A stretch of 64,000 nucleotides of DNA from Nocardioides glacieisoli (GTDB lineage: Bacteria; Actinomycetota; Actinomycetes; Propionibacteriales; Nocardioidaceae): positions 496,001 to 560,000 of the forward strand of contig NZ_SDWS01000001.1 of the NCBI RefSeq assembly GCF_004137245.1. The letters run 5' to 3'. Of this stretch, positions 27,135-45,423 are shown piece after piece; the stretch's first letter is position 1; each line of letters begins with the position of its first letter. Below the pieces are notes generated by a model, which was not told the origin of the DNA, ran no database searches, and was given only the letters and a program-made list of their open reading frames with translations. The translations under genes were made by a program, and so were the position numbers.

Positions 27135-27150
27135 CCCTGATTTCCCCTCG

Positions 27151-27286: not shown

Positions 27287-27288
27287 AA

Positions 27289-27310
27289 TTCGAACCCAGT
27301 ATCGCCCACC
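27289..27310 (+). repeat. attR: 22-bp direct repeat
   Basis: This is an identical copy of 17345-17366 (the tRNA-Val T-loop to ACC end) without the rest of a tRNA. It marks the right junction of the element. Chromosomal sequence resumes with the displaced tRNA terminator. Confidence 0.92.
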
Positions 27311-31272: not shown

Positions 31273-31848
31273 CTACGGCTGGGCGGCCGGAGGCAGGTCC
31301 GCGACCAGGCCCTCCGGAGCGCCGAGCGGGTCCTCCGGCAGCTGGGCGACCTGCTCACGGCACCACACCGACACGACGCGCGTGCCGTCCAGCACACCTG
31401 CCCGGAACTCGCTCCACGGCACCCAGGCGACCGAGTCCACCTCCGACGGGTCCGGATCGACCCGGTCCCGCGTGGAACCGACGAACACGGGGCACATCTC
31501 GTTCTCCACCACGCCGTCCTGCTCGGCGCGGTAGCGGAACGACGGCAGCACCAGCCGGAGGTCGTCGACGTCCACCCCGAGCTCCTGGCGCACCCGGCGT
31601 CGGGCGGCATCGGCGAGGTCCTCGCCCGGCGCGGGGTGCCCGCAGCAGCTGTTGGTCCACACGCCCGCAAAGGTCCGCTTCGTGAGGGCGCGCCGGGTGA
31701 CGAGCACGTTCCCCTCGGAGTCGAAGAGGTAGGTGGAGAACGCCAGGTGCAGCGGCGTCTCGCTGTGGTGGACCCCTGCCTTGTCGGCCGTGCCGACGGC
31801 CCGCCCGGCCTCGTCGAGGAGGACCACGAGCTCCCTGGCGGTGCTCAT
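31273..31848 (-). CDS. idi: Isopentenyl-diphosphate isomerase, type 1
   Basis: Idi (191 residues from ATG 31848) interconverts IPP and DMAPP and so feeds the prenyl synthase CrtE. The Nudix-fold type 1 enzyme is recognised by TRRALTKRTFAGVWTNSCCGHPAPGED with the catalytic Cys, the metal-binding His residues and the ENEMCPVFVG segment with the catalytic Glu. Its ATG overlaps the stop of the upstream FAD oxidoreductase gene, making it the last of fifteen coupled genes. In-frame codons further upstream lie inside the neighbour gene and are not used. Confidence 0.95.
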   Translation of the reverse strand: MSTARELVVLLDEAGRAVGTADKAGVHHSETPLHLAFSTYLFDSEGNVLVTRRALTKRTFAGVWTNSCCGHPAPGEDLADAARRRVRQELGVDVDDLRLVLPSFRYRAEQDGVVENEMCPVFVGSTRDRVDPDPSEVDSVAWVPWSEFRAGVLDGTRVVSVWCREQVAQLPEDPLGAPEGLVADLPPAAQP

Positions 31849-32891
31849 GCAGCACCCCCTGCGGGACGGGCGAGCTGGTTGACGGCCGCGCCGAAGACCC
31901 GCGGCAGCCGCGACGCGGCGGGGACGAGCGCACGACGTACGACGGGTCGCGCGGTCGCCTGCAGCAGCGCGTGCGTGAGCAGCTCGTGCCGCCACCCCAG
32001 CCGTCGTGCCCGTCCGTCGTAGAGGTCCGGGCGGTCCGCGGCGAGGCACGCCACTGCCGCCCGCGCCTGGGCGAGCCCGAGGGCGATGCCCTCACCGGTC
32101 AGGGCGTCGACGTAGCCGGCGGCGTCGCCGACCAGCAGCACCCGCCCGGCCGATCGTGACCGGGACCGCTGTCGCAGCGGGCCCGCGCCCATGACGCGGG
32201 TCCGGGTCCCGGTGAGCCGCTCGGCAAGGGCGGGGAAGTCGGCGATCAGGTCGTCGAAGCGGGCGCCCGCGTCGCCGAGCACCGCGACCCCGACGAGGTC
32301 GTCGTCGACGGGCGTGACGTAGGCCTCGGCCCGCGACGACCAGTGCACCTCGACGTAGGACGTCCAGGGCGCCTGCTCGACGTGGCAGCGCTGGCCGAAC
32401 CGTCGGCGCGACCCGTCCTTGGCGGGCGCGTCGAGGCCGAGCAGGCGGCGTACGGGTGAGTGCAGCCCGTCGGCCGCGACGAGGTAGCGGGCCGGCTCGC
32501 CGTCCACGAGCACGTGGTCGCCCACGTCCTGCACGTCCTCCACCGCTCGCTGCTCGACCGGGATCCCGGCCTCGGCCACGGCGCTCACGAGGGCGTCGTG
32601 CAGGACCGTGCGTCGCACGCCTCGGCCCGGCCCGGCGGCGAATCGCGCGGTGGCACCTGCGCCCGTGCCGTCGGCGGAGAGGTAGTGGATCCCCGCGAGC
32701 GGGCGGCCGTGCGGGTGCACGCCCAGCGCCGCCAGCTCGGCGACGGCACCGGGCATCAGACCCTCGCCGCACGCCTTGTCGATCGCGCCGGCGCGCGGCT
32801 CGCGGACGACGACGGACAGTCCGACGCGGTGTGCGTGCAGGGCCGCGACGAGCCCGACCGGGCCGCCGCCGGCGACGACGAGGTCATGCAT
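31845..32891 (-). CDS. FAD-dependent oxidoreductase, SrsC-like by context
   Basis: This 348-residue flavoprotein of the PHBH/geranylgeranyl-reductase superfamily has VAGGGPVGLVAALHA for dinucleotide binding, DKACGEGLMPGAV, VAADGLHSPVRRLLG and [22 protein letters not shown] for FAD. In Streptomyces srsABC operons a type III PKS, an ICMT-like methyltransferase and a flavoprotein hydroxylase are adjacent in that order, exactly as here. A role as a monooxygenase hydroxylating a phenolic lipid to a (hydro)quinone is therefore favoured. A prenyl reductase role is the alternative, though the operon has a better candidate for that. It overlaps the ICMT gene by 8 bp and idi by 4 bp. Confidence 0.75.
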   Translation of the reverse strand: MHDLVVAGGGPVGLVAALHAHRVGLSVVVREPRAGAIDKACGEGLMPGAVAELAALGVHPHGRPLAGIHYLSADGTGAGATARFAAGPGRGVRRTVLHDALVSAVAEAGIPVEQRAVEDVQDVGDHVLVDGEPARYLVAADGLHSPVRRLLGLDAPAKDGSRRRFGQRCHVEQAPWTSYVEVHWSSRAEAYVTPVDDDLVGVAVLGDAGARFDDLIADFPALAERLTGTRTRVMGAGPLRQRSRSRSAGRVLLVGDAAGYVDALTGEGIALGLAQARAAVACLAADRPDLYDGRARRLGWRHELLTHALLQATARPVVRRALVPAASRLPRVFGAAVNQLARPAGGAA

Positions 32892-33423
32892 CGGAGGTCT
32901 CCTGCTGGGGGAGCGTGGCGAGGGCGGCGTCCTCGGTCCGGATCCGCACCGCGAGCAGCCCGGCGTTGAGGATCGTGAAGACGACTGCGGTGATCCAGGC
33001 CGCGTGCACGAGCGGGAGCGCGACGCCCTCGATCACCACGGCGACGTAGTTGGGGTGCCGCAGGAGGCGGTAGGGGCCGGAGGTGACCGGGGCGAGGCCG
33101 GGCACGATGATCACGCGGGTGTTCCACCGCCGCCCGAGCGTCGCGATGCACCACCAGCGCAGCGCCTGCGAGGCGACCACGAGGGCGAGCATCGACCAGG
33201 CCAGCACCGACGGCACGTCGGGTCGGCGCACCCACGCCTCGACGAGCGCCCCGACGAGCAGCGCGGTGTGGAGCACGACCATGAAGGGGAAGTGGCCGAG
33301 CCCGCTCTCGACGCCGCCTCGATCGCGGCTCCACGCGGCGTTGCGGACCGAGACGACGAGCTCGGCGACGCGCTCGAGACCGACGAGCGCGACGAGGACG
33401 GTGAAGGCCAGGAGCGTGGTCAT
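32884..33423 (-). CDS. ICMT-type membrane methyltransferase, SrsB-like by context
   Basis: The 179-residue integral membrane protein has about four to five helices and the isoprenylcysteine methyltransferase C-terminal signature, [29 protein letters not shown], where R-H-P-N-Y is part of the SAM/substrate site. In bacteria these proteins methylate small lipophilic hydroxyl groups. The SrsB methyltransferase of streptomycete phenolic-lipid operons is the closest contextual match. The ATG at 33423 overlaps the stop of the type III PKS gene (ATGA). Confidence 0.82.
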
Positions 33424-34475
33424 GCGTCGGCCCTCAGCAGCACGATCTCGGAGCAGAAGCCCGGCCCCATCGCGAGCAGCACGCCGTGGCTTCCCGGCTC
33501 GGGCGGGCGTTGGGCGAGGGTGTCCTCGAGGACGTGGAGGACCGAGACCGACGACAGGTTGCCGACCCGCGCCAGCGAGTCCCAGGTCAGCTGCAGGGCC
33601 TCGCGGGGCACCTCGAGGGCGGCCTGCAGGGCCTCGATGACCTTGGGGCCTCCGGGGTGGCAGACCCACCAGCCGATGTCGTCGCGCGTGAGGTCGTGGT
33701 CGGCGAGGAAGGCGTCGACGTCGCCGCGGATGAAGAGCTCGACGAGGTTCGGCACCTCGGCGTCGAGGACGATCCGCAGGCCGGAGCCCGCCACGTCGAA
33801 GCCCATCGTGCGCTCGCTGTCGGGGTAGAGCCGGCTGCGCGAGTCGAGGACCTGCACCGTGCCGCCGTGCCGGGCGTCGCCCACGGCCACCACGGCCGAG
33901 GCCCCGTCGCCGAAGAGGCCGCTCGCCACCAGGTTGGGCACGGACGTGTCGTCGCGCTGCAGGGTGAGCGAGCACAGCTCGACCGCGACCAGCACCGCGG
34001 TGTGGTCGGGGTGGCCGAGCAGGTAGTCGTGCACGCGGGCGATCCCGGCGGCACCGGCCACGCACCCGAGGCCGACCAGCGGCATCCGGCGTACGTCCTC
34101 GCGCAGCCCGACCACTCCGGCGATCCGGGCGTCGAGGGACGGCACGGCCAGCCCGGTGACCGTCGCGGTGACGATGAGGTCGACGTCGGACGGGGTGAGG
34201 TCGGCGGCCTTCAGTGCGTCGACCAGCGCCTGCGCGCCGAGCTCGACGGCGTGCTCGATGAAGAGGTCGTTGGCGTGGCCGAAGTCGCCGAGCGTCGCGT
34301 AGTCGGCGAGCGGCAGCACCGTGTGCCGCCGCTCGACGCCGGAGTTGCGGTGGAACCTCCTCAGCAGCGCGTGGTCGAGGCTCCGCTCGGAGATCACGGA
34401 CGTGAAGGCCTCGGTGATCTCGGCCTGGGGGTAGGAGTGCGCGGGCAGGGCGCTGCGCGCGGCCAGGATCCTCAT
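33420..34475 (-). CDS. Type III polyketide synthase
   Basis: The 351-residue protein is a chalcone-synthase-like homodimeric ketosynthase. The catalytic triad can be placed at Cys138 ([11 protein letters not shown]), His273 (VCHPGGPK) and Asn306 (RVGNLSSVS), and the C-terminal [11 protein letters not shown] loop is present. Such enzymes condense malonyl units on an acyl starter to resorcinols, pyrones or naphthalene products. The downstream methyltransferase and flavoprotein point to an alkylresorcinol-type product. The upstream UbiA and prenyl reductase genes raise the possibility that the ring is also prenylated. The product cannot be read from the sequence. Confidence 0.92.
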
Positions 34476-35656
34476 GCGGGTGTCCTTGCGGGTCGGGGTC
34501 GGGGGAGCGGGACCAGGCTGCGGGTCAGCCCGGCCACCAGGCGGGAGTCGATGCGGCCTCCGCCGAGGCCGATCTCGACGAGGGTGTCGAAGACGTGCCG
34601 GTCACGACCGGCGGCGCGGATGCCGGCGTCGACGACGCGCGGGGACTGCGCGAGCCGGGAGGCCGCCCAGGTGTGGCGCAGGTGTGCGCCGAGGAGCGAC
34701 CGCACCACGTGCCGGTGGCGCGCGCCGGCGGCCTCGGGGCGACCGAGCGCGACCGCTCGAGCGGCGGTGCGACCGGCGGCGATCCCGGTGGCGACGGCGT
34801 AGTAGATGCCCTCGCCGGTCATCGGGTTCACCAGCCCGGCGGCGTCGCCGACCAGGAGGACGGGTCCGTCGGGCTGGTCCCAGCGCCAGCTGCTCAGCGG
34901 CAGGTGGTGCCCGCGCCAGTCGCTGCCGGTGCTGGCGGCCCCGGGCACGAGCTGCTCGAGCTGGTCGAGGAGGAGCCGGCGGCTGGGAGGACGGGTGCCG
35001 GACCGCTCCGTGGGCAGCAGCTCGCCGTAGCCGACGTTGGCGAGGCCGTCGCCGCGGTCGAAGGCCCAGGCGTACGACGTGTGCGTGCGGTCGCCGAAGC
35101 GGATGACCTGGCGGCCGCGCACGGCGTCGGTGACGGGCGCGTAGCCGCGGATGGCGATGGCTCGCCGGTCCCGGCGCCTGCCGAGGAGCGCCTGCCGCAC
35201 GAGGGAGTGGGCACCATCTGCGCCGACCACCACAGCGGCGCGAAGGTCACCGGAGACCACCGGACCCGTGTCGTCGACCGTGACCGACGTGACGCGGTGG
35301 CGGCGCAGGACGGCTCCCGCGGCCACGGCGTGCTCGACGAGGCGCGCGTCGAGGACCCGGCGCGGCACGACCCAGGCGTCGCGCCGCATCGGCCCGGCGA
35401 CGGCCACGTCGCCGTGGGCGAGCTCGAGGTCGCGCAGGGGCGTCCAGCCGTCGACGACGTCGGCGGCACCGACCTCGGCGAGGGCGTCGACCGCGTGCGG
35501 GGCGATGCCGTCGCCGCACGACTTGTCGCGGGGGAAGTCGCTGCGGTCGAGCAGCAGCACGCGCAGCGACGGGTCCTCGGTCAGTGCGCCGAGTGCGGCG
35601 CTGGCGCCGGCCGGCCCGGCTCCGACGACCACCAGGTCCCAGGTCTCGTCGGTCAT
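34472..35656 (-). CDS. Geranylgeranyl reductase family flavoprotein
   Basis: The 394-residue protein (ATG 35656) has the N-terminal FAD-binding [17 protein letters not shown], the family-specific [21 protein letters not shown] and [17 protein letters not shown], and [21 protein letters not shown]. These mark the geranylgeranyl reductase family, which saturates double bonds of prenyl chains attached to lipids or quinones. Its ATG overlaps the UbiA stop and its own stop overlaps the type III PKS start by 4 bp, placing prenyl transfer, prenyl reduction and polyketide synthesis side by side. The substrate is inferred from context. Confidence 0.85.
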
Positions 35657-36480
35657 CGCGCCACCACCAGGAGGGTCGCGTCGAGGAGAGCGATGGCGAT
35701 CGCGGCCAGGAAGGGCCGCCGGCCGGAGCCGCGGACCACGACGAGCGCGAGCGCCAGGGTGACGACCGCGGCCACGCCAGCCGGGACCGGCGGGACCGAG
35801 GCGCCCGCCAGCACGACGGCGGTCGCGGCCACGAGCACCGCTGCGGCCACCGGGGCGATCCAGCGGGGACCGAGCCGGTGCGGCAGGCCACGGACGCCGG
35901 TCGCCGCGTCGGCGTCGAGGTCGGGCAGCACGTTGAGCAGGTGCGCGCCCACGCCGAGCAGCGCGGCACCGACCGGCCACCACCACGGCGGCGCCGCGTC
36001 GTCGGCGTACGACACCACGGCCGTCAGGCCGCCGAAGCTCGCGGCGTAGGGAGCCCACGACCATGCGGTGGACTTGAGGCCGAGGTTGTAGGCCCACGCC
36101 GACGCGACGCAGCCGAGGTGGATGAGTCCGGGGAGCAGCCCGAGGGCGAGCGAGAGAACGACGCAGGCGACGACGGCGGCCACACAGGCGCCGCGCACGA
36201 CGCCGAGCGACGCCTCGCCGGTCGCGAGGGGCTTGTCGGCGCGTCCCGCGCGCCGGTCGCGGCCCACGTCGACGAGGTCGTTGCTCCAGCCGACGGACAG
36301 CTGGCCGGCGAGCACCGCCGCGACGACGAGGAGGGTCGTCCCGGCATCGAGGCCCTGGGCGGTTGCCAGCAGGCCGGACAGCACCGTGACCGCGAGCGCC
36401 GGCCCGGCATGCGCGGCATGCACGAGACCCCGGACGGCAGGTCCGGTGGTTCCGCGGCCGTGCGAGAGCTCGGTGCTCAC
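35653..36480 (-). CDS. UbiA-family prenyltransferase
   Basis: The 275-residue membrane protein has about eight helices and the two aspartate-rich prenyl-diphosphate motifs of the UbiA family, NDLVDVGRDRRAGR (NDxxDxxxD) and LPDLDADAATG (DxDxD). It should attach a polyprenyl chain, probably the C20 chain made by CrtE, to an acceptor. In C50-carotenoid pathways a UbiA protein (CrtEb) elongates lycopene. Here the reductase and PKS neighbours favour an aromatic acceptor, but both remain open. A GTG start at 36480 is set by overlap with the PAP2 stop. Confidence 0.87.
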   Translation of the reverse strand: MSTELSHGRGTTGPAVRGLVHAAHAGPALAVTVLSGLLATAQGLDAGTTLLVVAAVLAGQLSVGWSNDLVDVGRDRRAGRADKPLATGEASLGVVRGACVAAVVACVVLSLALGLLPGLIHLGCVASAWAYNLGLKSTAWSWAPYAASFGGLTAVVSYADDAAPPWWWPVGAALLGVGAHLLNVLPDLDADAATGVRGLPHRLGPRWIAPVAAAVLVAATAVVLAGASVPPVPAGVAAVVTLALALVVVRGSGRRPFLAAIAIALLDATLLVVAR

Positions 36481-37340
36481 GGGGCCTCCTCGGTGAGGCC
36501 CGGCACGGACCTCTTCCCGCGACCGTACCCACCGGGCCGTGTGGCAACGGCGACGAGGACCGCGAGGACGGCGACCGCCCAGCCCGCGAGGACGTCGACG
36601 ACGTAGTGCTCGCCCGTGTGGACGAGCGTCAGCCCCATCGCGAGGGCGTACGCCGACAGCGCGAGGCGGACGGCCGGTGAGACGGACGGCCAGAGGAAGA
36701 GGGCGACGAGGAGGGCCGCGCCGGCGTGGAGCGAGGGCATCGCGGCCACCGGGTTGCTGCCCGCCTGTCCGGCCTCGGTGAGCCGGCCGACGACGTCGAG
36801 GTGCAGCAGGTCCCACCCGACGTGCGAGGTGCGGGCGACCTCGCCGATGTCGCCGCGCTGCGAGGCGAGCCACGGGGGTGCGGCGGGGTAGACGACGTAG
36901 CCGGTGATGCCGACGACCGACATCGTCAGGGCGGCGACCACCCACTCCCGGAACCGGTCGCGGACCGCGAACCACACGACGGCCGTGACGAGGGGGATCA
37001 CCACGAAGTGCGTGACGTAGACGAGCGCCGCGACCGCGTCCCACCAGTGGGGTGCGCCGTCGGACAGTCGGGCCTGCAGCCAGACGGTGGGGACGACGCC
37101 GAAGAGTCCCTCGTCGGCCCGCGCGGGGCCGAGGACGTGGAGCGGTGCCCCGACCCGGTTGGTGTCCTCGCCGTCGCCGGTGCCGAGTGGGGCGGTGATC
37201 CAGTGCGCGATCCCGTAGGCGACGAGGATCACGCTGAGCGGCGACCAGGCGATGAGAAGCTGGGCGATCGGCCCGTGCCGCGAGTCCTCGGCGGGCGGCG
37301 ACGCCAGGTCGGTCCGTGGTCGGGTCGCCTCGGTCGTCAT
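36477..37340 (-). CDS. PAP2-superfamily membrane phosphatase or transferase
   Basis: The 287-residue protein has about six membrane helices and PAP2 motifs MPSLHAGAALL (active-site SxH) and HTGEHYVVDVLAGW. The stretch GITGYVVYPAAPPWLA is typical of the AUR1/inositol-phosphorylceramide-synthase-like branch. It may dephosphorylate a lipid phosphate or diphosphate or transfer a polar head group. In this operon a prenyl diphosphate or an acyl donor lipid is a possible substrate, which is guesswork. ATG 37340 overlaps the upstream stop by 4 bp. Confidence 0.8.
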   Translation of the reverse strand: MTTEATRPRTDLASPPAEDSRHGPIAQLLIAWSPLSVILVAYGIAHWITAPLGTGDGEDTNRVGAPLHVLGPARADEGLFGVVPTVWLQARLSDGAPHWWDAVAALVYVTHFVVIPLVTAVVWFAVRDRFREWVVAALTMSVVGITGYVVYPAAPPWLASQRGDIGEVARTSHVGWDLLHLDVVGRLTEAGQAGSNPVAAMPSLHAGAALLVALFLWPSVSPAVRLALSAYALAMGLTLVHTGEHYVVDVLAGWAVAVLAVLVAVATRPGGYGRGKRSVPGLTEEAP

Positions 37341-37834
37341 CGGAGGCTCCCGCGGCGCTCGAGTCGATCGATCAGTGGCAGCGTCCGGAACCGGTTGTAG
37401 CGCTGGATGGCGATGAAGGGCACGTTGACCAGTACCCCGTAGGCCACCAGCAGGACGGCCGCGACCGGCGGGTTCCACAGCACGAAGAGCGGCGCGCAGG
37501 CCATCGCCCACCAGTGGGTGAGCTCGGCGCGCCGCGTCTCGCGCACGAAGATCCGCAGGCCCTCGACGTCGCGTGCGGGCAGCTCACGCTTGCTGACCCC
37601 GCCCTCGAAGAGGGCGCCGGCCTCGGGCAGCCGGTCCTTCCAGCGGTGGATGCGGAGCCGGCGGCGGTACCACCCGCCGCCCGCCTCGAAGCGGCGCCCG
37701 CGCAGCAGCGGGCCGTCGCGGTCGAGCCGGTGGTCGCTGACGCGGTGGGCGGCGTAGCCCGTCACGGCGTGGAAGAACCCCCAAGCGAGGACGTCGACGA
37801 CGATGGTCAACCACGGCGGCATGACGTACCCCAT
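37337..37834 (-). CDS. CrtO-like glycosyl-carotenoid acyltransferase
   Basis: The 165-residue membrane protein has three to four helices and the sequence IHRWKDRLPEAGALFEGGVSKREL followed by FIAIQRYNRFRT. This is the pattern I recall for glycosyl-4,4'-diaponeurosporenoate acyltransferase (CrtO of staphyloxanthin synthesis) and its actinobacterial relatives. It would esterify a carotenoid-bound sugar with a fatty acid. Its position after a CrtQ-like glycosyltransferase supports this. The ATG at 37834 overlaps the upstream stop by one base (ATGA pattern). Confidence 0.75.
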   Translation of the reverse strand: MGYVMPPWLTIVVDVLAWGFFHAVTGYAAHRVSDHRLDRDGPLLRGRRFEAGGGWYRRRLRIHRWKDRLPEAGALFEGGVSKRELPARDVEGLRIFVRETRRAELTHWWAMACAPLFVLWNPPVAAVLLVAYGVLVNVPFIAIQRYNRFRTLPLIDRLERRGSLR

Positions 37835-38976
37835 CAGGCCGCCTCCCGGGTCGTGCGGTCGCGCCGCAGGTCGACCGGTCGACCGCGCCAGCTCACCGAG
37901 CGGCGTACGACCGTCAGCAGCACCGAGCGCGCGAAGACCAGGTCGAAGGCGAGCAGGGGGAGCGGGAACAGCGCCCAGGCCCACCACCGGAAGGACCCCG
38001 CCGTACGCAGCACGGAGCGCAGCTGCAGGGCCGCCACGAGCCACGCCGCCACCCAGATGACCGTCGAGGTCCCAGCCCTCCCGCTGAACGCGTCGACGAC
38101 GGCACCCAGGGTCCCGAGCGCGACGACGTGGTGGGCGCAGACCCACAGCACGGTCGCGAGCGACGCGAGTGGGTTCGCCGCTGACGCACCCGAGGCGATG
38201 TTCTTGCTCCACCCGGACACCAGCTGCGCGGCGCCGCCCGGGTAGCTGCGCATGGAGACCACGTCGGTGCCGACGAAGGAGGTCACCGGCAGGCCCGCCA
38301 GGTCGTAGGCCCGCGCGAGCTGGACGTCGTCGAGTATCTCGCCGCGCACGGCGCGGTGGCCGCCGACCAGCTCGTAGTCGGCGCGCGAGGTGAGCAGGCA
38401 CGGCCCGAAGGCCATCGGCCGCCGCGCGCGGCGTCCGGTGAAGGCGGCACTGGCCATGAGTGCGACGGCGTTGAAGTAGGCCGACGCCTGCTCGTAGGTC
38501 CGGACGACCCGGTGGTGCGGCTGCACCGAGACCAGCCCGCCGTGCTGGTGGTGGGCGGCCTGCAGGCGCCCCAGGGCGTCCGGCGCGAGCACGGTGTCGG
38601 CGTCGAGGAAGAGCAAGAGGTCGCCGGTCGTGGCCTCGGCGCCGGTGTGGCACGCCCAGGCCTTGCCGGTCCAGCCCTCCGGGCGCGACCGGGCGGCGAC
38701 CACGCGCACACCCGCGGCAGCCGCGACGGCCGCGGTCCGGTCGGACGAGTCGTCGTCGACGACCACGACCTCGACCGCCACCTCGCCCTCCGACTGCGAC
38801 CCGAGCGAGGCCAGGAGTGCCGGCAGGGTCCTCTCCTCGTCGCGGGCAGGCACCACCACCGAGACCGTGCGTCCCTGTCCTGGTGCCGTGGGCGGCAGCG
38901 TCCGGATGTCGCGCAGCAGCCACAGCGGCACGCATCCGGCCACGAGCAGCACGACGGCCAGCACCAGGTCAGGCAC
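37834..38976 (-). CDS. GT2 glycosyltransferase, CrtQ-like
   Basis: The 380-residue enzyme has one N-terminal membrane helix, a family 2 glycosyltransferase domain (VSVVVPARDEERTLPALLASL, VVVVDDDSSDRTAAVA, LLLFLDADTVLAPDAL with the DxD-type motif, DDVQLARAYDLAGLPV) and about four C-terminal membrane helices. The layout is that of 4,4'-diaponeurosporenoate glycosyltransferase CrtQ and similar carotenoid glucosyltransferases. It would add a sugar to a carotenoid hydroxylated by the neighbouring P450. It overlaps the P450 gene by 8 bp. Confidence 0.8.
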   Translation of the reverse strand: MPDLVLAVVLLVAGCVPLWLLRDIRTLPPTAPGQGRTVSVVVPARDEERTLPALLASLGSQSEGEVAVEVVVVDDDSSDRTAAVAAAAGVRVVAARSRPEGWTGKAWACHTGAEATTGDLLLFLDADTVLAPDALGRLQAAHHQHGGLVSVQPHHRVVRTYEQASAYFNAVALMASAAFTGRRARRPMAFGPCLLTSRADYELVGGHRAVRGEILDDVQLARAYDLAGLPVTSFVGTDVVSMRSYPGGAAQLVSGWSKNIASGASAANPLASLATVLWVCAHHVVALGTLGAVVDAFSGRAGTSTVIWVAAWLVAALQLRSVLRTAGSFRWWAWALFPLPLLAFDLVFARSVLLTVVRRSVSWRGRPVDLRRDRTTREAA

Positions 38977-40360
38977 GGCGACCTCCGGACACCGGGAGCG
39001 GCGTGAGCTCGAGGTGCATCCCGCCGCGCGGGTGGACGGCCACCTGGGCCTCGGGGTCGGGTCGGCGCCAGCCCGCCGGGAGCCCGACGTGGTGCGTGGC
39101 GAGGAGCCGGTCGAGCACGACGGCCATCTCGCCGAGGGCGAGCTCGCGACCGATGCAGAGCCGCGGACCCTGGCCGAACGGGAGGTACGCCGTCCGGCCG
39201 GCGCCGGTCTCGAGGAACCGCTCCGGCCGGAACTCCTCGGGGTCGGACCACACGTCCGGCCTGCGGTGGACGAGCCACGGGCTGATGATCGCCAGCGTGC
39301 CGGCCGGGACCTCGACGCCGCCCAGCACGTCGTCGCGGTCCGAGCGTCGCGAGACCACCCAGGCCGGGGGGAACAGCCGCAGTGCTTCGTCGATGACCGC
39401 CCGGGTCCAGGGGATGCGGTCGCGGTGGTCGAGCAGGGAGACCGGTCCGGGCAGCGTTGCCAGCTCGTCGCGGACCCGCTCCTGCGCGTCGCGGTCCTCG
39501 GCGAGGAGCATGAGGGTCCAGGTGAGCGAGGCGGCGACGGTCTCGTGGCCGGCGATCACCATCGTGACGAGCTCGTCGCGGACCTCCCTGTCGGTGAGGC
39601 CGCTGTCGAGGAGCAGGCCGAGGAGGTCGTCGCCGTGCGGGACGGCACCGGGCGCCGACGGTCGCGCGCGCCGCTCCGCCATCAGCTGGGCGGTGACGGT
39701 GTCGAGGCGTCGCCGTGCCGATCGGAGTCGGAGGTTGGTCCGCGTCGGTGCCCACTCGGCCGTCGGCAGGATCGAGCGCCCGAGCCGGACCACGATCTCG
39801 GCAGCCTGGCTGCTGGCGTGCAACAGGTCGTCGGCATGGCCGCCGAGGTCCGCGGAGAACAGCGCCCGCCCGACGGCGTCGAGCCCGATCCGGTGCATGA
39901 GGGACGCGACGTCGACGACGCCCGGGCCGTCGGTCGGGAGCGTCGTGCGCATCGCGTCGTCGGCGGCGGAGCGCACGCGGCCGCTCACCGCGGTGAGCCG
40001 CTCGTGGTGGAACGCGGGCGCGGCCAGCCGACGGTGCTCGATCCAGTTCGGCTCGGCCGAGGCCAGCAGTCCGGGGCCGGTCACCCGCCCGAGGGCGGCG
40101 TACTGCACCGTGCTCTTGCCCCAGTGGCGTGCCCCGGTCTGCAGGACCTGCCGCACGTCGTCGGGGTCGTTGACGAGGAGCGCCGGCGAGCCGGGCACGG
40201 GGAACGAGACCAGGTCGCCGTAGCGCCGCTGCACCTGCCCGAGGAAGGTGAGCGGGTCGCGGCGCACGGACCGGAAGACGCGCGCCATGTCGGTCGACGT
40301 CGGACCCGGTACGCCGATCTCGGTGGGCTGCATCGCCTGCAGCCGCTCGGTGATGGTCAT
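38969..40360 (-). CDS. Cytochrome P450 of the carotenoid operon
   Basis: The 463-residue P450 has the I-helix VIAGHETVAASLTW, the ExxR motif in DEALRLFPP, an aromatic-Arg segment EEFRPERFL and the heme-binding loop FGQGPRLCIGREL with the Cys ligand. The general look is that of the CYP175/CYP102-like bacterial group, which includes a beta-carotene 3-hydroxylase in Thermus. Placed directly after crtYc/crtYd and before a glycosyltransferase, it most likely hydroxylates the cyclised carotenoid end group. The ATG at 40360 overlaps the stop of crtYd. The redox partners are not encoded nearby. Confidence 0.88.
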   Translation of the reverse strand: MTITERLQAMQPTEIGVPGPTSTDMARVFRSVRRDPLTFLGQVQRRYGDLVSFPVPGSPALLVNDPDDVRQVLQTGARHWGKSTVQYAALGRVTGPGLLASAEPNWIEHRRLAAPAFHHERLTAVSGRVRSAADDAMRTTLPTDGPGVVDVASLMHRIGLDAVGRALFSADLGGHADDLLHASSQAAEIVVRLGRSILPTAEWAPTRTNLRLRSARRRLDTVTAQLMAERRARPSAPGAVPHGDDLLGLLLDSGLTDREVRDELVTMVIAGHETVAASLTWTLMLLAEDRDAQERVRDELATLPGPVSLLDHRDRIPWTRAVIDEALRLFPPAWVVSRRSDRDDVLGGVEVPAGTLAIISPWLVHRRPDVWSDPEEFRPERFLETGAGRTAYLPFGQGPRLCIGRELALGEMAVVLDRLLATHHVGLPAGWRRPDPEAQVAVHPRGGMHLELTPLPVSGGRRA

Positions 40361-40695
40361 GCGGCATCCCCGCGGGCGCGGTTGCGCCCCAGCCACGTCC
40401 ACGCCACGCAGGACAGCAGGACCAGCCCGAAGCCGAAGAGCAGGTCCTCGACCGGCGCGTAGAGCAGGCGCCACTCGCCGACGGCGACGACCCGGTCGTT
40501 GCCGAGGATGGTCGCGGGGTCGTACTGCACGATGCGCCGACCGGTCAGCCAGCCGTTGGTGAGCAGCTGGAAGAACACGATGATCGCGTAGGCGGACCAC
40601 CAGTCGCGGGTGCTGGTGACCCGGGTGCGGGCCACCCACCGGTCGACCACGACGGCGACCAGCACGCCCAGCACGGCGAGCGAGGTGTAGGTCAT
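40357..40695 (-). CDS. crtYd: Lycopene cyclase subunit CrtYd
   Basis: The 112-residue protein has three membrane helices and the lycopene cyclase domain motif LLYAPVEDLLFGFGLVLL (PxE[ED]xxF). Actinobacteria build their lycopene beta-cyclase from two such small subunits, and the partner CrtYc is encoded immediately upstream with a 4-bp overlap. The split pair can also carry C50 cyclase activity in some species. The assignment to d rather than c rests on gene order and the shorter TM pattern. Confidence 0.87.
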   Translation of the reverse strand: MTYTSLAVLGVLVAVVVDRWVARTRVTSTRDWWSAYAIIVFFQLLTNGWLTGRRIVQYDPATILGNDRVVAVGEWRLLYAPVEDLLFGFGLVLLSCVAWTWLGRNRARGDAA

Positions 40696-41018
40696 CGGTC
40701 CGCCACCCGGCGTCGGACGACCTTGACCGCCTCGAACGTCAGCACCGACACGACGGGGATGACGACGAAGAAGGCGACCTCCTCGAGCGGTATCCCGGCG
40801 ACGCGCGGCGGGAGCGTCTGCTCGGCGTCGAACCGCCAGTGGCCTGCGTGGGTCGCGTAGAGGTCCCACAGCAGGAACGGGGTGCCGGCCAGGAGGACGG
40901 TGAGGAGGAGCCGGCGCGGCTGGCGCAGCACGTCGAGTCGGAACGCGGGCACGAGCGGGAGGGTGCCGGCCAGGCAGAACGCCAGCATGGCGACGTAGGA
41001 CCAGTGCAGCAGGGTCAT
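40692..41018 (-). CDS. crtYc: Lycopene cyclase subunit CrtYc
   Basis: The 108-residue protein has three membrane helices and the motif RVAGIPLEEVAFFVVIPV (PxEExxFF), the hallmark of one half of the heterodimeric actinobacterial lycopene cyclase. The gene starts at ATG 41018, overlapping the crtI stop (ATGA), and its stop overlaps the crtYd start. Both halves are needed for cyclisation of lycopene ends. Confidence 0.88.
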   Translation of the reverse strand: MTLLHWSYVAMLAFCLAGTLPLVPAFRLDVLRQPRRLLLTVLLAGTPFLLWDLYATHAGHWRFDAEQTLPPRVAGIPLEEVAFFVVIPVVSVLTFEAVKVVRRRVADR

Positions 41019-42568
41019 CCACCCACCGGCCCGGAGGTGCGGTCGCCGGACAGGCGCTTGAGGACGAGCTCCGCACTGATCAGGCACATCGGCAGGCCGA
41101 CGCCCGGGATCGTCGTGGAGCCGGCGTAGAGCAGGCCGTCGACCTTGCTCGAGGCGTTGCCGGGACGCAGGAATGCGCTCTGTCGCAGGGTGTGCTCCAG
41201 CCCGAGGGCGCCGCCGCGCCACGAGTGGTAGCGCGTGGCGAAGTCCTGCGGACCGATGGTGTGGCGGACCCGGATCCGGTCGCGCAGGTCGGGCACGTCG
41301 GCCCACGCCGCGACCAGGTCGATCGCTGCGTCCGCGGTGCGCTCGACCAGGTCGTCGCCGTTGCCGTCGTCGCCGCCGGTGCCGATCGAGGTGTCGGCGG
41401 GCACTGGAACGAGGACGAACAGGTTCTCCGAGCCGGGCGGGGCGACCGAGCTGTCGGTCTCGGACGGCTTGCAGACGTAGATCGACGCCGGGTCGGGCAC
41501 CCGGGCGTCGCGACCGAAGATGTCGCCGAAGTTCTGGCGCCAGTCGGCGGTGAAGAAGAGCGTGTGGTGTGCCAGCTGGGGCAGCTCGCCGTCGACGCCC
41601 AGCATCGCGAGCACCGCGCCCGGACCGGGGGAGCGGCGGCGCCACGAGCGCTCGGGGTGGGTCTGCAGGTGATCGGGGAGCAGCGCGGTCTCGAGGTGGT
41701 GGAGGTCCGCGGCCCCGACGACGACGTCGGCATCGAGCGTGGTGGCGGTGCCGTGCCGGTCGACGTGCCGCACGCCCGAGACCCGGGGGCGACCGCGTCG
41801 CGCGGCGTGAGTCGTGATCGTGGTGACCTCGGCGCCCGTGTGCAGCCGCGCCCCGTGCTTCTCGGCCAGCAGCGCGATCGCCTCGACCAGGCGGGTGAAG
41901 CCGCCCTGCGGGTAGAGCACCCGGTCGCCGAGGTCGAGCCGGCTCATCAGGTGGTAGATGCTCGGTGCCCGGCTCGGCGACGACCCGAGGAAGACGGCGG
42001 GGTAGCCGAGGACCTGCTGGATCCGGCGGTCGGAGAACGACGCGGCGACGTGCTTCTCCAGCGAGCGGGTGAGCAGCCGGCCCAGGGACGGAGCACGGCG
42101 TACGACGTCGGCGCCGAGCAGCGAGGTGGGCGAGTCGAAGCTGTTGTAGAGGAAGCGGCGGAGCGCGACGTCGTAGGTGTCCTCGGCCGAGGCGAGGTAG
42201 GTGTCGAACCGGTCACCCGCGCCCGGCTCGATCGACTCGAAGAGGGCGCGGTTGTGCGCGCGGTCGGGGCGGAGGTCCACCGGGTCGGGGTGGCCCTCGA
42301 AGAAGACGCGGTAGCTGGGGTCGAGCACCCGGAGGTCGAGCTCGGCCTCGGCCGAGGTGCCCAGGAGGTCGAAGAAGTGCTCGAAGACCTCGGGCATGAG
42401 GTACCACGACGCGCCGGTGTCGAAGCGGAAGCCGTCGCGCTCGACGCTGCCGACCCGGCCGCCGACCTCGTCGTTCTTCTCGAGGAGGTCGACGCTGTGG
42501 CCGCGCGACGCCAGGAGCGCGGCGGTGGCGAGTCCGGCGATGCCACCACCGACGACCACCACCTTCAC
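41015..42568 (-). CDS. crtI: Phytoene desaturase
   Basis: CrtI (517 residues from a GTG start) dehydrogenates phytoene to lycopene with FAD. It begins VVVVGGGIAGLATAALLA, continues with LEKNDEVGGRVGSVERDGFRFDTGASWYLMPEVF and ends with LLYAGSTTIPGVGLPMCLISAELV, all characteristic of the bacterial CrtI family. It follows crtB with a 4-bp overlap (GTGA) and precedes crtYc. Confidence 0.95.
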   Translation of the reverse strand: MKVVVVGGGIAGLATAALLASRGHSVDLLEKNDEVGGRVGSVERDGFRFDTGASWYLMPEVFEHFFDLLGTSAEAELDLRVLDPSYRVFFEGHPDPVDLRPDRAHNRALFESIEPGAGDRFDTYLASAEDTYDVALRRFLYNSFDSPTSLLGADVVRRAPSLGRLLTRSLEKHVAASFSDRRIQQVLGYPAVFLGSSPSRAPSIYHLMSRLDLGDRVLYPQGGFTRLVEAIALLAEKHGARLHTGAEVTTITTHAARRGRPRVSGVRHVDRHGTATTLDADVVVGAADLHHLETALLPDHLQTHPERSWRRRSPGPGAVLAMLGVDGELPQLAHHTLFFTADWRQNFGDIFGRDARVPDPASIYVCKPSETDSSVAPPGSENLFVLVPVPADTSIGTGGDDGNGDDLVERTADAAIDLVAAWADVPDLRDRIRVRHTIGPQDFATRYHSWRGGALGLEHTLRQSAFLRPGNASSKVDGLLYAGSTTIPGVGLPMCLISAELVLKRLSGDRTSGPVGG

Positions 42569-43452
42569 GAGCCGCTCCCGCGCAGCGCTCCGGCGGCGAT
42601 CCGCAGCTTGACCCCCGTGGGCACGCGCACCCGGGTGCGGCGGATCTCCACTGCGGAGGTCCGGCGCAGGCGGCAGGCCAGCTCGCCGAACGTGCCGTGG
42701 GCGGCGTGCACCGCCCGGCGGCTGCTCGTCGGGAGGGCGGGCACGACCACGGCGGCGGCGGCGAGGTCGGCGTCGATGTCGTCGAGGATGCGGTCGCGGT
42801 CGGCGTCGCAGAACCGGTCGACGTCCAGGCCGGGGAAGTAGTCGCGGCGCAGGACGTCGTGGTCGTCGGCCAGGTCGCGCACGAAGTTGAGCTTCTGGAA
42901 GGCCGCACCGAGGCTTCGGGCACCGGGTGCGAGCCGGTCGTAGGTGTCCGCGCGGTCGCGGGGGCCGTCCGGCGCGGCGACGAAGGCGCGCAGGCACATC
43001 AGCCCGACCACCTCGGCCGACCCGAAGACGTACGCCTCGAAGCTGGCAGGGGTGTGCTCGGTGGTGTCGAGGTCCATCCTCATGGACGCGAAGAACGGCG
43101 CGACGATCTCGTCGGTGATGCCGACGGCCTGCGCGGTGCGGGCGAAGGCGTGCACGACGAGGTTGCCGCTGTAGCCGGTGCGGATCGCGTGCCGGACGTC
43201 GTCCTCCAGCCAGTCGAGCATGGTGGCCCGGGCCGCGCGGGGGAGGGCGGGATCGGGGTTGTCGACGATCTCGTCGGCGACCCGCACGAGTGCGTAGATG
43301 TTGCGCACCTGCGTGCGCACCGGCTCGCCGAGCAGGCGCGAGGCGAGGCCGAAGGAGCTGGAGTACTCCCGGATGACGACGGCGGAGCTGGCCTCGGACA
43401 CCGCGTCGTAGAGGGTGGTGCCGGTGACCGCCCGGGTCAGGTGGAGGTTCAT
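42565..43452 (-). CDS. crtB: Phytoene synthase
   Basis: The 295-residue squalene/phytoene synthase joins two GGPP molecules head to head. The two Asp-rich motifs are visible as VRVADEIVDNP and VRDLADDHDVLRRDYFPGLDVD. The N-terminal segment YSSSFGLASRLL and YALVRVADEIVD are typical of CrtB. The ATG at 43452 overlaps the crtE stop and the gene's stop overlaps the GTG of crtI. Confidence 0.95.
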   Translation of the reverse strand: MNLHLTRAVTGTTLYDAVSEASSAVVIREYSSSFGLASRLLGEPVRTQVRNIYALVRVADEIVDNPDPALPRAARATMLDWLEDDVRHAIRTGYSGNLVVHAFARTAQAVGITDEIVAPFFASMRMDLDTTEHTPASFEAYVFGSAEVVGLMCLRAFVAAPDGPRDRADTYDRLAPGARSLGAAFQKLNFVRDLADDHDVLRRDYFPGLDVDRFCDADRDRILDDIDADLAAAAVVVPALPTSSRRAVHAAHGTFGELACRLRRTSAVEIRRTRVRVPTGVKLRIAAGALRGSGS

Positions 43453-44489
43453 GCCGCGACCTCGCGCCCGTCGACGACCGTCAGTCGCCGGACGGTGACG
43501 GCCTCGAGGAGGTCGAGGGAGATGCCCAGCTCGGCGACACCCGAGCGGGCCAGGGCCAGGTGCTGCTCCGCGAGCTCCTCCACGAAGGCGCGTGACCCGG
43601 ATACGGTGAGCAGCGCCCGGACCTCGTCAAGCTCGTCGTCACCGAGCTCGTGGCCGAGGTGGCCGCTGATCTCGTCCCACTGGGGGGTCGACCGCGCATG
43701 GACGATGAGGGGCGTCTGCTTGCGGGTGCGCAGGTCGCACGTCGCGCTCTTGCCGGAACGGTCGGGATCGCCGAAGACGCCGATCAGGTCGTCCACCAGC
43801 TGGAACGCCACGCCCATGGCCCGGCCCAGGTCGCCGAGCCGCGCCGTCGTCGCCGCGTCGGCGCCCGCCAGCACCGCCCCGGCCTGCAGCGGCAGGGCGA
43901 AGGAGTAGGCGCTGGTCTTGTGCTCCTCCATGGTCAGGCTCTCGGCGAGCGACACGGGCCCGCGGTCGAGGGTGAGGCGCACGTCGGCGAGCTCGCCCGC
44001 GGCAGTGGTGTGCAGGGCGGAGTCGAAGAGGTCGAGCAGGCGTCGTACGACGTCGGGTTGCGCCCCGCACAGGGCGACCGCGCGGACCGCTGCTGCCAGG
44101 GCGAGGTCGCCCGCGAGGATGGCGGCCGTGAGCCCGTAGGCAGCTCCGTCGTCCGTGGCGCCGAGCGCCCGTCCCCGCGCGCGGAACGTGCCGCTCACGT
44201 TGGGCCGGCCCCGTCGCAGGTGGTCGTCGTCGATCACGTCGTCATGGATGACGAAGGCCGTGTGGAGCAGCTCGACGGCGGCGCCGACCTCCGCAGCGGC
44301 GTCGGGGCTCGTGCCGCCGAGGGCGTCGTGCGTGGAGATGACCAGTGCGGGCCGGAAGCGTTTCCCGCCCTCGGTGGCCTCGACCAGGGCATCCCAAAGG
44401 AAGGCGTGGTGGGGGTCGATCGTCGCCGCACGGGCGCGACCGTTGTCGAGCAGGCGCCGCAGCGCGGCGTCCGTACCTGTCGAGATCAT
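43449..44489 (-). CDS. crtE: Geranylgeranyl diphosphate synthase (polyprenyl synthetase)
   Basis: The 346-residue trans-prenyltransferase has the first Asp-rich motif in FVIHDDVIDDDHLRRGRPN and the second in FQLVDDLIGVFGDPDRSGK, plus GKRFRPALV. It supplies the C20 diphosphate for phytoene synthesis and probably for the UbiA enzyme in the same operon. A strong GAGGAGG precedes the ATG at 44489, so this first gene of the operon has a normal leader, unlike many genes in the window. A palindrome and a TAGATT -10-like element lie in the 88-bp gap shared with the divergent MerR-DICT gene. Confidence 0.92.
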   Translation of the reverse strand: MISTGTDAALRRLLDNGRARAATIDPHHAFLWDALVEATEGGKRFRPALVISTHDALGGTSPDAAAEVGAAVELLHTAFVIHDDVIDDDHLRRGRPNVSGTFRARGRALGATDDGAAYGLTAAILAGDLALAAAVRAVALCGAQPDVVRRLLDLFDSALHTTAAGELADVRLTLDRGPVSLAESLTMEEHKTSAYSFALPLQAGAVLAGADAATTARLGDLGRAMGVAFQLVDDLIGVFGDPDRSGKSATCDLRTRKQTPLIVHARSTPQWDEISGHLGHELGDDELDEVRALLTVSGSRAFVEELAEQHLALARSGVAELGISLDLLEAVTVRRLTVVDGREVAA

Positions 44490-44525
44490 TCGTCCCCCTC
44501 CTCACGGGTGCACCTGTCCCGAGTC

Positions 44526-44544
44526 AATCTATGCAAGACTTGCA
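44526..44544. promoter_or_regulatory. crtE promoter/operator region
   Basis: The palindrome TGCAAG-A-CTTGCA (44532-44544) directly abuts TAGATT (44531-44526 on the minus strand), a -10-like element for crtE. It therefore falls in the -10/-35 spacer, where MerR-family regulators bind. The regulator gene starts 34 bp away on the other strand. Confidence 0.55.
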
Positions 44545-44577
44545 ACTATATCTAGACATCATGCATAGGAGTCATCG

Positions 44578-45423
44578 GTGTCCACGTCGCACGCACCCCT
44601 CACCATCGGTGAGCTCGCCCGTCGTACCGGTGTACCCACTACGACGCTGCGCAGCTGGGAATCCCGCTACGGATTTCCGCGACCCGTGCGCCAGGCCGAC
44701 GGGGGCCACCGGCGCTACGCGGAGTCGGAGGTGCGCGCCGTGCTCGACGTGCTGGAGCGGCGGAGCTCGGGGCTCTCCCTCCCCGCGGCCGTGCAGCGCG
44801 TCGTCGACGGGCCGGCTCGGTCGGGCTCGGTCTTCGCAGAGATCCGCCGCCGGCACCCCGTCCTGGCGCCGCAGGTGCTCACGCGACCCACCCTGGTCGC
44901 GATGAGCTGGGCGATCGAGGACGAGTGCTGTGCCCGGGCCGCGGAGCCGCTCCTCTTCGGCGGGTTCCAGCGCGAGACCTTCCTGCGCGGGTCGCACGAC
45001 CGCTGGCGCGAGCTGGCCCGCACGGCCCGCCACGCCGTCGTCTTCGCGGACTTCGCCGATCCCGCACCCCTCGAGCCGGGCGAGCCCGTCGAGGTGGCCC
45101 TGCCCCGCGACGCCCAGCTCAACCGCGAGTGGCTCGTCATCTGCGACTCGCCCGACCTGCCCGCCTTCCTCACCGCCGTCGAGCGCCCCGGCCAGGACGC
45201 GTTCTCAGCTGACCGCCGCTTCGAGGCGATGTGGTCCGTCGACCCCGTGGTGGTCCGCGACGCCAGCCGGTTGGCCGCGGCCCTCGCCGACCGCTACCGC
45301 CCGGACTGGCGGCAGAGGGCGCCCGACCTGCCCGACGCGGACCCCGTGGCGGGCTCGGCCGACCTCCACCGGGCGTCGGCGCTCTTCGACCGCATGGTCG
45401 GCTACCTCGACGCGGCCCGCTGA
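44578..45423 (+). CDS. MerR-family regulator with DICT sensory domain
   Basis: The 281-residue protein has an N-terminal MerR helix-turn-helix (LTIGELARRTGVPTTTLRSWESRYGFPRPVRQADGGHRRY) and a C-terminal part with AMSWAIEDECCARAAEPLLFGGFQRE, the start of a DICT sensory domain. DICT domains occur in light- or signal-responsive regulators. AGGAG lies six bases before the GTG start. It is divergent from the crtE operon and is its likely regulator, analogous in position to LitR of other actinobacterial carotenoid clusters, though it lacks a B12-binding domain. The signal is unknown. Confidence 0.85.
   Translation: MSTSHAPLTIGELARRTGVPTTTLRSWESRYGFPRPVRQADGGHRRYAESEVRAVLDVLERRSSGLSLPAAVQRVVDGPARSGSVFAEIRRRHPVLAPQVLTRPTLVAMSWAIEDECCARAAEPLLFGGFQRETFLRGSHDRWRELARTARHAVVFADFADPAPLEPGEPVEVALPRDAQLNREWLVICDSPDLPAFLTAVERPGQDAFSADRRFEAMWSVDPVVVRDASRLAAALADRYRPDWRQRAPDLPDADPVAGSADLHRASALFDRMVGYLDAAR

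What the first reader, a model, noticed from the sequence alone, without database searches (positions are those of the whole stretch)
31273..44489. Fifteen translationally coupled genes join carotenoid, prenyl-transfer and type III polyketide synthesis
From crtE to idi every neighbour overlaps by 1 to 8 bp with no visible internal promoter gap. The set contains GGPP synthase, phytoene synthase, desaturase and split cyclase, then P450, glycosyltransferase and acyltransferase, then PAP2, UbiA and geranylgeranyl reductase, then type III PKS, ICMT methyltransferase and FAD oxidoreductase (the srsABC order of streptomycete phenolic lipids), then Idi. A UbiA plus prenyl reductase beside a phenol-forming PKS predicts a methylated, possibly quinone-type aromatic lipid bearing a reduced C20 chain, made from the same GGPP pool as the carotenoid. 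One operon would then coat the membrane with two isoprenoid antioxidants.
Basis: partly seen in the sequence, partly recalled or inferred. Interest (0 to 1): 0.72.

Follow-up and report, generated by a model that had tools for sequence, protein, structure and literature searches.

The report
Carotenoid operon that captured lipid-quinol genes
In this bacterium a run of carotenoid-pigment genes also carries a five-gene set that is predicted to make a second membrane lipid, a quinol with an isoprenoid tail, so that one switch would likely control two lipids built from one shared precursor.

Summary
In detail: fifteen minus-strand genes, crtE to idi (44489-31273), with all 14 junctions overlapping by 1-8 bp. 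Relatives show that two separate units were joined. The carotenoid operon (crtE to PAP2) and the cassette UbiA-GGR-PKS III-ICMT-FAD each occur alone. They are fused in 13 of the 57 cassette-bearing genomes among 147 examined in the genus. A paired operator-like motif upstream of crtE occurs in 13 of 13 fused loci, 8 of 12 carotenoid-only loci, 0 of 58 non-fused cassette/UbiA loci, and once in this genome. UbiA goes with the polyketide cassette: the best 80 (of 249) UbiA loci of one named-genome scan all carry PKS-ICMT-FAD, including Streptomyces griseus. The cassette resembles the published agq cluster (alkyl-O-dihydrogeranyl-methoxyhydroquinones), so its chemistry is a known kind. New are its capture by a carotenoid operon and hints of a longer, reduced tail: a prenyl reductase, and two genomes where a crtE copy overlaps UbiA directly. 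Product, tail length, co-transcription and antioxidant role are untested.

The parts
43449..44489 (-). crtE, prenyl diphosphate (likely GGPP) synthase, 346 aa
   Evidence: PF00348 E 9e-50; DDxxxD motif at 83-88; chain length not shown
42565..43452 (-). crtB, phytoene synthase, 295 aa
   Evidence: PF00494 E 2e-33; the only PF00494 match in the genome
41015..42568 (-). crtI, phytoene desaturase family, 517 aa
   Evidence: TIGR02734 over its cut-off
40692..41018 (-). lycopene cyclase subunit (split cyclase, first half), 108 aa
   Evidence: PF18916, TIGR03462 over its cut-off
40357..40695 (-). lycopene cyclase subunit (split cyclase, second half), 112 aa
   Evidence: PF18916, TIGR03462 over its cut-off
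38969..40360 (-). cytochrome P450, predicted carotenoid ring hydroxylase, 463 aa
   Evidence: PF00067; among solved structures LUTEIN DEFICIENT 5 (E 1e-41) and CYP175A1 (E 3e-36) rank 2nd-4th, after an unnamed putative P450 (7wzl, E 1e-55); FGQGPRLCIG motif
37834..38976 (-). GT2 glycosyltransferase, predicted to act on the carotenoid, 380 aa
   Evidence: PF00535; NCBIfam HpnB/CruG below cut-off
37337..37834 (-). CrtO-type glycosyl-carotenoid acyltransferase, 165 aa
   Evidence: PF18927 E 4e-28; no NCBIfam match
36477..37340 (-). PAP2-superfamily membrane protein, last gene of the carotenoid part, 287 aa
   Evidence: PF14378 E 1e-30; present in 11 of 12 carotenoid-only loci and 0 of 44 non-fused cassette loci of the genus
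35653..36480 (-). UbiA-family prenyltransferase (predicted AgqD-like), 275 aa
   Evidence: PF01040 E 5e-20; NDxxDxxxD at 67-75 and DLDAD at 187-191; linkage to PKS-ICMT-FAD
34472..35656 (-). geranylgeranyl-reductase-family flavoprotein, 394 aa
   Evidence: TIGR02032 over its cut-off; YxWxF motif, also in 64 of 64 relatives scored
33420..34475 (-). type III polyketide synthase, 351 aa
   Evidence: PF00195/PF02797; Cys138, His273 and Asn306 contexts (GLGC, CHPGG, GNLSS); nearest solved chain Pks11 of M. tuberculosis, E 2e-123
32884..33423 (-). ICMT-type membrane methyltransferase, 179 aa
   Evidence: PF04140 E 2e-28; RHPNY motif
31845..32891 (-). FAD-dependent oxidoreductase, predicted ring hydroxylase (SrsC/AgqC position), 348 aa
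   Evidence: PF01494; GG-reductase superfamily below cut-off; lacks YxWxF, as do 165 of 165 relatives scored
31273..31848 (-). idi, isopentenyl-diphosphate isomerase, 191 aa
   Evidence: PRK03759 and TIGR02150 over their cut-offs
44578..45423 (+). divergent MerR-DICT regulator, 281 aa
   Evidence: PF13411 + PF10069; divergent from crtE in 13 of 13 fused loci and present in 7 of 12 carotenoid-only loci
44526..44558 (-). paired operator-like (or promoter) motif TGYMTAGRT-N14-TGCATAGRTT before crtE
   Evidence: only match in the genome at up to 2 mismatches, 0 in the reversed-pattern control; in 13 of 13 fused loci, 8 of 12 carotenoid-only loci, 0 of 58 and 0 of 97 others

Best explanation
The row of 15 overlapping genes is a Nocardioides-type carotenoid operon (crtE to PAP2) joined, ahead of idi, to a five-gene cassette (UbiA-GGR-PKS III-ICMT-FAD) that is predicted to make an agq/srs-like O-prenylated alkyl-methoxyhydroquinone, so that both lipids would likely draw on the same CrtE-made prenyl diphosphate under one promoter. 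Inferred steps, from the families: the PKS would extend a fatty acyl starter to an alkylresorcinol; ICMT would O-methylate it; the FAD enzyme would hydroxylate the ring to the methoxyhydroquinone; UbiA would attach a polyprenyl group; GGR would saturate part of the tail. In parallel CrtB/CrtI, the split cyclase, P450, GT2 and CrtO would give an acylated glycosyl-carotenoid. Shown: gene order and overlaps; the separate existence of both units in relatives; the single upstream motif; intact catalytic motifs. Not shown: co-transcription, substrates, tail length, products.
For: Order and overlaps, conserved in fused relatives: 165 of 182 junctions against 13.3% in the control. Families, motifs. 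Cassette without carotenoid genes: 44 of 57 cassette genomes of the genus; 19 of 20 PKS-centred loci fetched from the class search (the 20 best-ranked, of 83 genomes with a match); 80 of 80 named UbiA loci. Carotenoid operon without the cassette: 12 of 12 near loci fetched lack the PKS, 11 of 12 carry P450-GT2-CrtO-PAP2, and 5 of 12 have idi directly after PAP2 on the same strand. Motif before crtE: 13/13 fused, 8/12 carotenoid-only, 0/58, 0/97, one in the genome. Donor link: in G279 and G342 a second crtE, beside a complete carotenoid operon elsewhere in the genome, overlaps UbiA by 4 bp (ATGA). Chemistry by analogy: AgqA alkylresorcinols are 'subsequently prenylated and hydroxylated' (PMC10896814, passages); agqA-agqD orthologs are taken as diagnostic of alkyl-O-dihydrogeranyl-methoxyhydroquinones (PMC7692728, passages).
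Against: No product is known in this genus from my calls. The original agq paper is not held, and no A. missouriensis sequence was obtained, so orthology to Agq proteins was not tested directly. The nearest solved PKS is Pks11, an alpha-pyrone synthase. GGR is missing from 10 of 44 non-fused genus loci, 7 of these without a sequence end to excuse it, and from 78 of 80 named loci. UbiA relatives occur without PKS in 4 family loci not ended early enough to explain it with certainty (L045, L059-L061) and beside one carotenoid operon (L225). The carotenoid genes of fused loci do not form one clade (4 label changes, against 2 for the cassette), so the joining was not a simple single event. Strains with agq orthologs did not show the expected ions in one LC-MS study (PMC7692728).
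Confidence: 0.68

Rival explanations
1. Same cassette, short donor: UbiA attaches a C10 (geranyl) group as in the Actinoplanes product, drawn from the general isoprenoid pool; the joining to crtE is about regulation, not substrate.
For: The described agq products carry a dihydrogeranyl group (name and masses in PMC7692728). 42 of 44 non-fused genus loci have no crtE relative in the fetched stretch.
Against: crtE overlaps UbiA in G279 and G342, and a geranylgeranyl-reductase-family gene sits beside UbiA. Neither fixes the chain length.
Confidence: 0.27
2. The PKS-ICMT-FAD product stays unprenylated (alkylquinone as in srs, or alkylpyrone as for Pks11), and UbiA-GGR make a different reduced prenyl lipid.
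For: 5 of 20 class loci have PKS-ICMT-FAD with no UbiA relative in view; the nearest solved PKS is a pyrone synthase; 4 family loci have UbiA without PKS.
Against: 80 of 80 named UbiA loci carry the PKS set within 1.6 kb; published agq work links such a UbiA gene to prenylation of the PKS product (PMC10896814, PMC7692728, passages).
Confidence: 0.15
3. UbiA is a carotenoid enzyme (lycopene elongase of C50 carotenoids) placed at the end of the crt genes.
For: It lies in a carotenoid operon with a split cyclase, and one carotenoid-only relative (L225) has a UbiA relative nearby without PKS.
Against: 11 of 12 near carotenoid-only operons have no UbiA, and 41 of 44 non-fused cassette loci have UbiA but no crtB/crtI. 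30 cyclase-centred loci of the class gave no UbiA match better than E 0.6, though no confirmed elongase sequence was on hand for comparison.
Confidence: 0.04
4. The genes are only packed together: a strong internal promoter before UbiA makes two independent transcripts.
For: Both halves work as separate loci in relatives; high-GC promoters are not covered by the scan.
Against: PAP2 and UbiA overlap by 4 bp in 11 of 13 fused loci, leaving no intergenic gap.
Confidence: 0.12

Closest known systems
agqABCD cluster of Actinoplanes missouriensis (alkyl-O-dihydrogeranyl-methoxyhydroquinones; Awakawa et al. 2011, doi 10.1002/cbic.201000628, not held; known here from passages in PMC10896814, PMC7692728, PMC8698034 and from recall)
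   Same: Type III PKS, methyltransferase, hydroxylase and membrane prenyltransferase genes together; a methylated, hydroxylated, prenylated alkylresorcinol would be the product.
   Different: Here the set sits inside a carotenoid operon, has a GG-reductase-family gene within it and idi behind it, and likely a longer prenyl donor. Direct sequence comparison with Agq proteins was not possible.
srsABC of Streptomyces griseus (phenolic lipids; recalled, and named in PMC10896814)
   Same: PKS-ICMT-FAD in the same order; L207 from S. griseus NCTC13033 matches at 55, 65 and 54-55% identity.
   Different: In L207 a UbiA gene lies divergently beside the three genes, with no GGR and no carotenoid genes in the fetched 14.6 kb. 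That this locus is srsABC is inferred from order and from there being only two type III PKS matches in that genome.
Split-cyclase carotenoid operons of actinobacteria (crtE-B-I-Yc/Yd type)
   Same: crtE, crtB, crtI, two cyclase halves, tailoring genes.
   Different: P450, GT2, CrtO and PAP2 follow; in 13 genomes a polyketide cassette is built in before idi.
Tocopherol/plastoquinone-type pathways (UbiA-family prenyltransferase plus GG reductase plus methylated hydroquinone; recalled)
   Same: The combination of an aromatic prenyltransferase, a prenyl reductase and a methylated hydroquinone.
   Different: The ring would come from a type III PKS and not from homogentisate; in Agq the link is an ether (O-prenyl).

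Membership tests
agq-type alkyl-O-prenyl-methoxyhydroquinone cluster | Type III PKS, methyltransferase, flavin hydroxylase and UbiA-family prenyltransferase side by side | tested here: met
   UbiA, GGR, PKS, ICMT, FAD contiguous at 36480-31845
agq-type alkyl-O-prenyl-methoxyhydroquinone cluster | Proteins orthologous to AgqA-D of A. missouriensis | not tested
   no A. missouriensis sequence obtained; G358 was tried for its size but its contig is 8801664 bp and one search showed that group to be Microbispora
agq-type alkyl-O-prenyl-methoxyhydroquinone cluster | Product is an O-prenylated alkyl-methoxyhydroquinone | not testable with these tools
   needs lipid extraction and LC-MS/MS
srsABC-type phenolic lipid operon | PKS III - ICMT methyltransferase - FAD enzyme in that order, one strand | tested here: met
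   same order in L207
srsABC-type phenolic lipid operon | PKS makes alkylresorcinol and not alkylpyrone | tested here: inconclusive
   nearest solved chain is the pyrone synthase Pks11 (415 bits); the S. griseus PKS scores 406 bits; similarity does not decide
C50 carotenoid (lycopene elongase) cluster | UbiA gene goes with the cyclase genes | tested here: not met
   UbiA in 1 of 12 near carotenoid-only loci and 0 of 8 far ones; with the PKS and without crtB/crtI in 41 of 44 non-fused loci
Glycosylated, acylated carotenoid operon | crtE, crtB, crtI, cyclase, hydroxylase, glycosyltransferase, CrtO acyltransferase in one unit | tested here: met
   11 of 12 carotenoid-only relatives carry P450, GT2, CrtO and PAP2
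Glycosylated, acylated carotenoid operon | Pigment is a hydroxylated glycosyl ester | not testable with these tools
   needs pigment analysis
Functional aromatic UbiA prenyltransferase | Two Asp-rich motifs | tested here: met
   NDLVDVGRD and DLDAD in the window; NDxx[DN]xxxD in 158 of 159 and PDxxxD in 159 of 159 relatives scored

The most novel reading that the evidence does not exclude
One MerR-DICT switch, perhaps sensing light or redox, turns on a dual-shield operon: an acylated glycosyl-carotenoid plus a polyketide-built, vitamin-E-like lipid, an alkyl-methoxyhydroquinone bearing a reduced C20 geranylgeranyl tail, both fed by the same CrtE. The repeated or long-kept joining of the two units would mark them as parts of one membrane-protection programme.
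Probability: 0.27. Interest if true: 0.7.

Novelty: new variant of a known kind. Interest (0 to 1): 0.45.

Why it matters
agq/srs-type clusters are common in actinobacteria, but the role of their lipids is called enigmatic in print (PMC10896814, passage). Regulatory capture by a carotenoid operon is an independent clue to that role: stress protection of the membrane, sharing the prenyl pool. The natural set of fused, split and crtE-only loci in one genus makes both the role and the prenyl-donor question directly testable. It also gives a likely operator for MerR-DICT regulators of carotenoid genes.

Tried and rejected
Rejected: lycopene elongase for UbiA. Rejected: PAP2 as part of the polyketide cassette (0 of 44 non-fused genus loci). 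Rejected: UbiA as the genome's heme O synthase, since another UbiA-family gene scores over that model's cut-off; where menaquinone prenylation sits was not settled (L271 gave no NCBIfam match at 1e-10). Not decided: one capture with later splits, or several captures. The cassette tree needs 2 label changes (FUSED), the carotenoid tree 4, forced by starred branches; the module tree includes 57 rows and the carotenoid tree 25.

Literature: no paper on a carotenoid-plus-PKS III operon was found in searches (0, 4, 0, 0, 0 papers; the 4 were judged by title and abstract start; 12 papers; passages seen in 2). [quoted passage not shown] Most subscription papers are not held.


Full report
Observation. 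The row is as described. One search places 15 minus-strand genes from crtE (44489) to idi (31273), with overlaps of 4,4,4,4,4,8,1,4,4,4,4,4,8 and 4 bp. Pfam and NCBIfam give polyprenyl synthase, phytoene synthase, CrtI family, two lycopene cyclase domains, P450, GT2, CrtO acyltransferase, PAP2, UbiA, geranylgeranyl-reductase family, type III PKS, ICMT, FAD enzyme and isopentenyl-diphosphate isomerase. Catalytic motifs are present: PKS GLGC/CHPGG/GNLSS, UbiA NDLVDVGRD and DLDAD, GGR YAWAF, P450 FGQGPRLCIG (which motifs matter is recalled).

The genus. These names are inferences.

Two units. A search of 147 genomes of the genus found the PKS at E <= 1e-90 in 57. All 57 loci were examined: the window, 5 fetched earlier and 51 fetched. 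In 13 of 57 the carotenoid genes precede UbiA as in the window; in 44 they do not. Five of the 44 are cut upstream by a contig end or chromosome start (L094, L106, L117, L122, L127); for these the crtB search found crtB elsewhere (G273) or not at all (G224, G333, G346, G350), the last three genomes being only 77-87% complete. The crtB search found 58 of 147 genomes with a match, 7 of them weak (34-38% identity). Twenty crtB loci outside fused operons were fetched. The 12 near ones (L218-L229) hold crtE-crtB-crtI and both cyclase halves; 11 also hold P450-GT2-CrtO-PAP2; 7 have the MerR regulator; 5 have idi directly after PAP2 on the same strand; none has the PKS; one (L225) has a lone UbiA relative. 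The 8 far ones have neither P450, CrtO nor PAP2. So the fused operon equals the carotenoid unit with the cassette placed between PAP2 and idi, or joined with its own idi, since 33 of 44 non-fused cassettes also have idi in view.

The cassette is widespread and independent of carotenoids. Of 20 PKS-centred loci fetched from the class search (the best-ranked of 83 genomes with a match among 148), 20 have ICMT and FAD, 15 have a UbiA relative (one at only 34% identity), 9 have GGR and 1 has carotenoid genes. Of 20 UbiA loci fetched from the family search (39 of 61 genomes with a match), 14 have PKS-ICMT-FAD; 6 do not, two of which are visibly cut by a contig end (L053, L057), while L045 (8.1-kb contig), L059, L060 and L061 are not readily excused. 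Neighbours of the last three include pyridine nucleotide-disulphide oxidoreductases, sigma-70 region 4 proteins and ABC transporters (not every neighbour was scanned). In a scan of named genomes with a Microbispora UbiA alignment, the best 80 of 249 confirmed loci were returned, and 80 of 80 have PKS, ICMT and FAD with UbiA within 1.6 kb of the PKS; 0 of 80 have crtB or crtI, 2 of 80 have GGR. The query itself came from PKS-linked genes, so this is a test of that subfamily and not of all UbiA proteins.

Streptomyces griseus. L207 (NCTC13033) has PKS-ICMT-FAD at 55, 65 and 54-55% identity with a divergent UbiA gene at 53%. That genome has two type III PKS matches in all. I take the locus to be srsABC, by order; the names are recalled.

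Regulation. An 88-bp gap separates crtE from the divergent MerR-DICT gene. Comparing the gaps of fused and carotenoid-only loci showed a repeated element, written as TGYMTAGRT-N14-TGCATAGRTT. In the window's genome it occurs once at up to 2 mismatches, with no match of the reversed control pattern. A slightly looser form was found in 13 of 13 fused loci and 8 of 12 carotenoid-only loci, in 0 of 8 far carotenoid loci, 0 of 58 non-fused cassette loci (two of these, L045 and L053, show UbiA but no PKS, and several are cut upstream) and 0 of 97 other loci. The pattern was drawn from the fused and carotenoid-only loci, so its presence there is by construction; the informative parts are its uniqueness in the genome and its absence from cassette-only loci. 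Whether it is an operator or part of a promoter is open.

Prenyl donor. In G279 and G342 a crtE relative stands directly before UbiA, the crtE stop overlapping the UbiA ATG (ATGA) in both, while a complete carotenoid operon with its own crtE lies elsewhere in each genome. The two cassette-linked crtE genes form their own clade. This suggests that UbiA uses a CrtE product. It does not prove C20. These two are 2 of 44 non-fused loci; the others show no such gene in the fetched stretch except a weak polyprenyl synthase match in L134 on the other strand.

History. On the cassette tree the fused label needs 2 changes, on the carotenoid tree 4. One capture with later splitting, or more than one capture, or exchange of carotenoid genes between fused and separate operons would all fit. 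L084 (97% identical PKS, 69% identical UbiA, no carotenoid genes) points to recombination around the PKS.

Coupling. Over the 13 fused loci 165 of 182 junctions overlap, 13.3% in the displaced control. The PAP2-UbiA junction, where the units meet, overlaps by 4 bp in 11 of 13, by 20 bp in one (L085) and not at all in one (L107).

Product. By analogy with agq (passages in PMC10896814, PMC7692728, PMC4044012 and PMC8698034; the original paper is not held) the cassette is predicted to give an O-prenylated alkyl-methoxyhydroquinone. Masses given for the agq compounds in PMC7692728 are 486.41, 500.42, 556.49 and 570.50; by my formulas 486.41, 556.49 and 570.50 fit a C10H17 group with C15, C20 and C21 alkyl chains, so I could not reconcile the 'dihydro' state from masses alone. 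That study did not observe these ions in its four strains. For the carotenoid, P450 relatives among solved structures include LUT5 and CYP175A1, so a ring-hydroxylated, glycosylated and acylated carotenoid is predicted, similar to thermozeaxanthins (recalled).

Verdict. A real, lineage-specific operon that joins a known carotenoid unit to a known kind of prenylated phenolic lipid cassette. The kind of chemistry is known; the regulatory capture, the in-cassette GG reductase and the crtE-UbiA coupling make it a new variant.

Noticed in passing
window 17293-27310: The last 20 bp of a tRNA-Val gene (17293-17366) recur exactly at 27291; the stretch between has lower GC (0.65-0.68 in much of it) and two phage-integrase-family genes (25073-26020 +, 26031-27200 -): likely an integrative element of about 10 kb.
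   Followed up: partly
window 44490-44577: Gap between the MerR-DICT gene and crtE with a conserved paired element, one copy in the genome; DICT regulators of carotenoid operons gave no paper.
   Followed up: yes
window 29014-31149 (-): PAS-PAS-GAF-SpoIIE-type phosphatase gene just downstream of idi on the same strand, a possible stress-signalling neighbour.
   Followed up: no
L084 (G257): PKS 97% identical to the window's but UbiA only 69% and no carotenoid genes: a gradient of identity around the PKS that suggests recombination between fused and separate cassettes.
   Followed up: no
L225 12495-13274: Lone UbiA relative (58%) right after a carotenoid operon, with no PKS in the 18.8 kb: a decayed or re-purposed cassette remnant.
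   Followed up: partly
L059, L060, L061: UbiA relatives (47-52%) without PKS, among pyridine nucleotide-disulphide oxidoreductase, sigma-70 and ABC transporter genes: a second context of this UbiA family.
   Followed up: partly
L207 (Streptomyces griseus NCTC13033): A UbiA gene lies divergently beside the srsABC-like genes, so srs phenolic lipids may also be prenylated.
   Followed up: no
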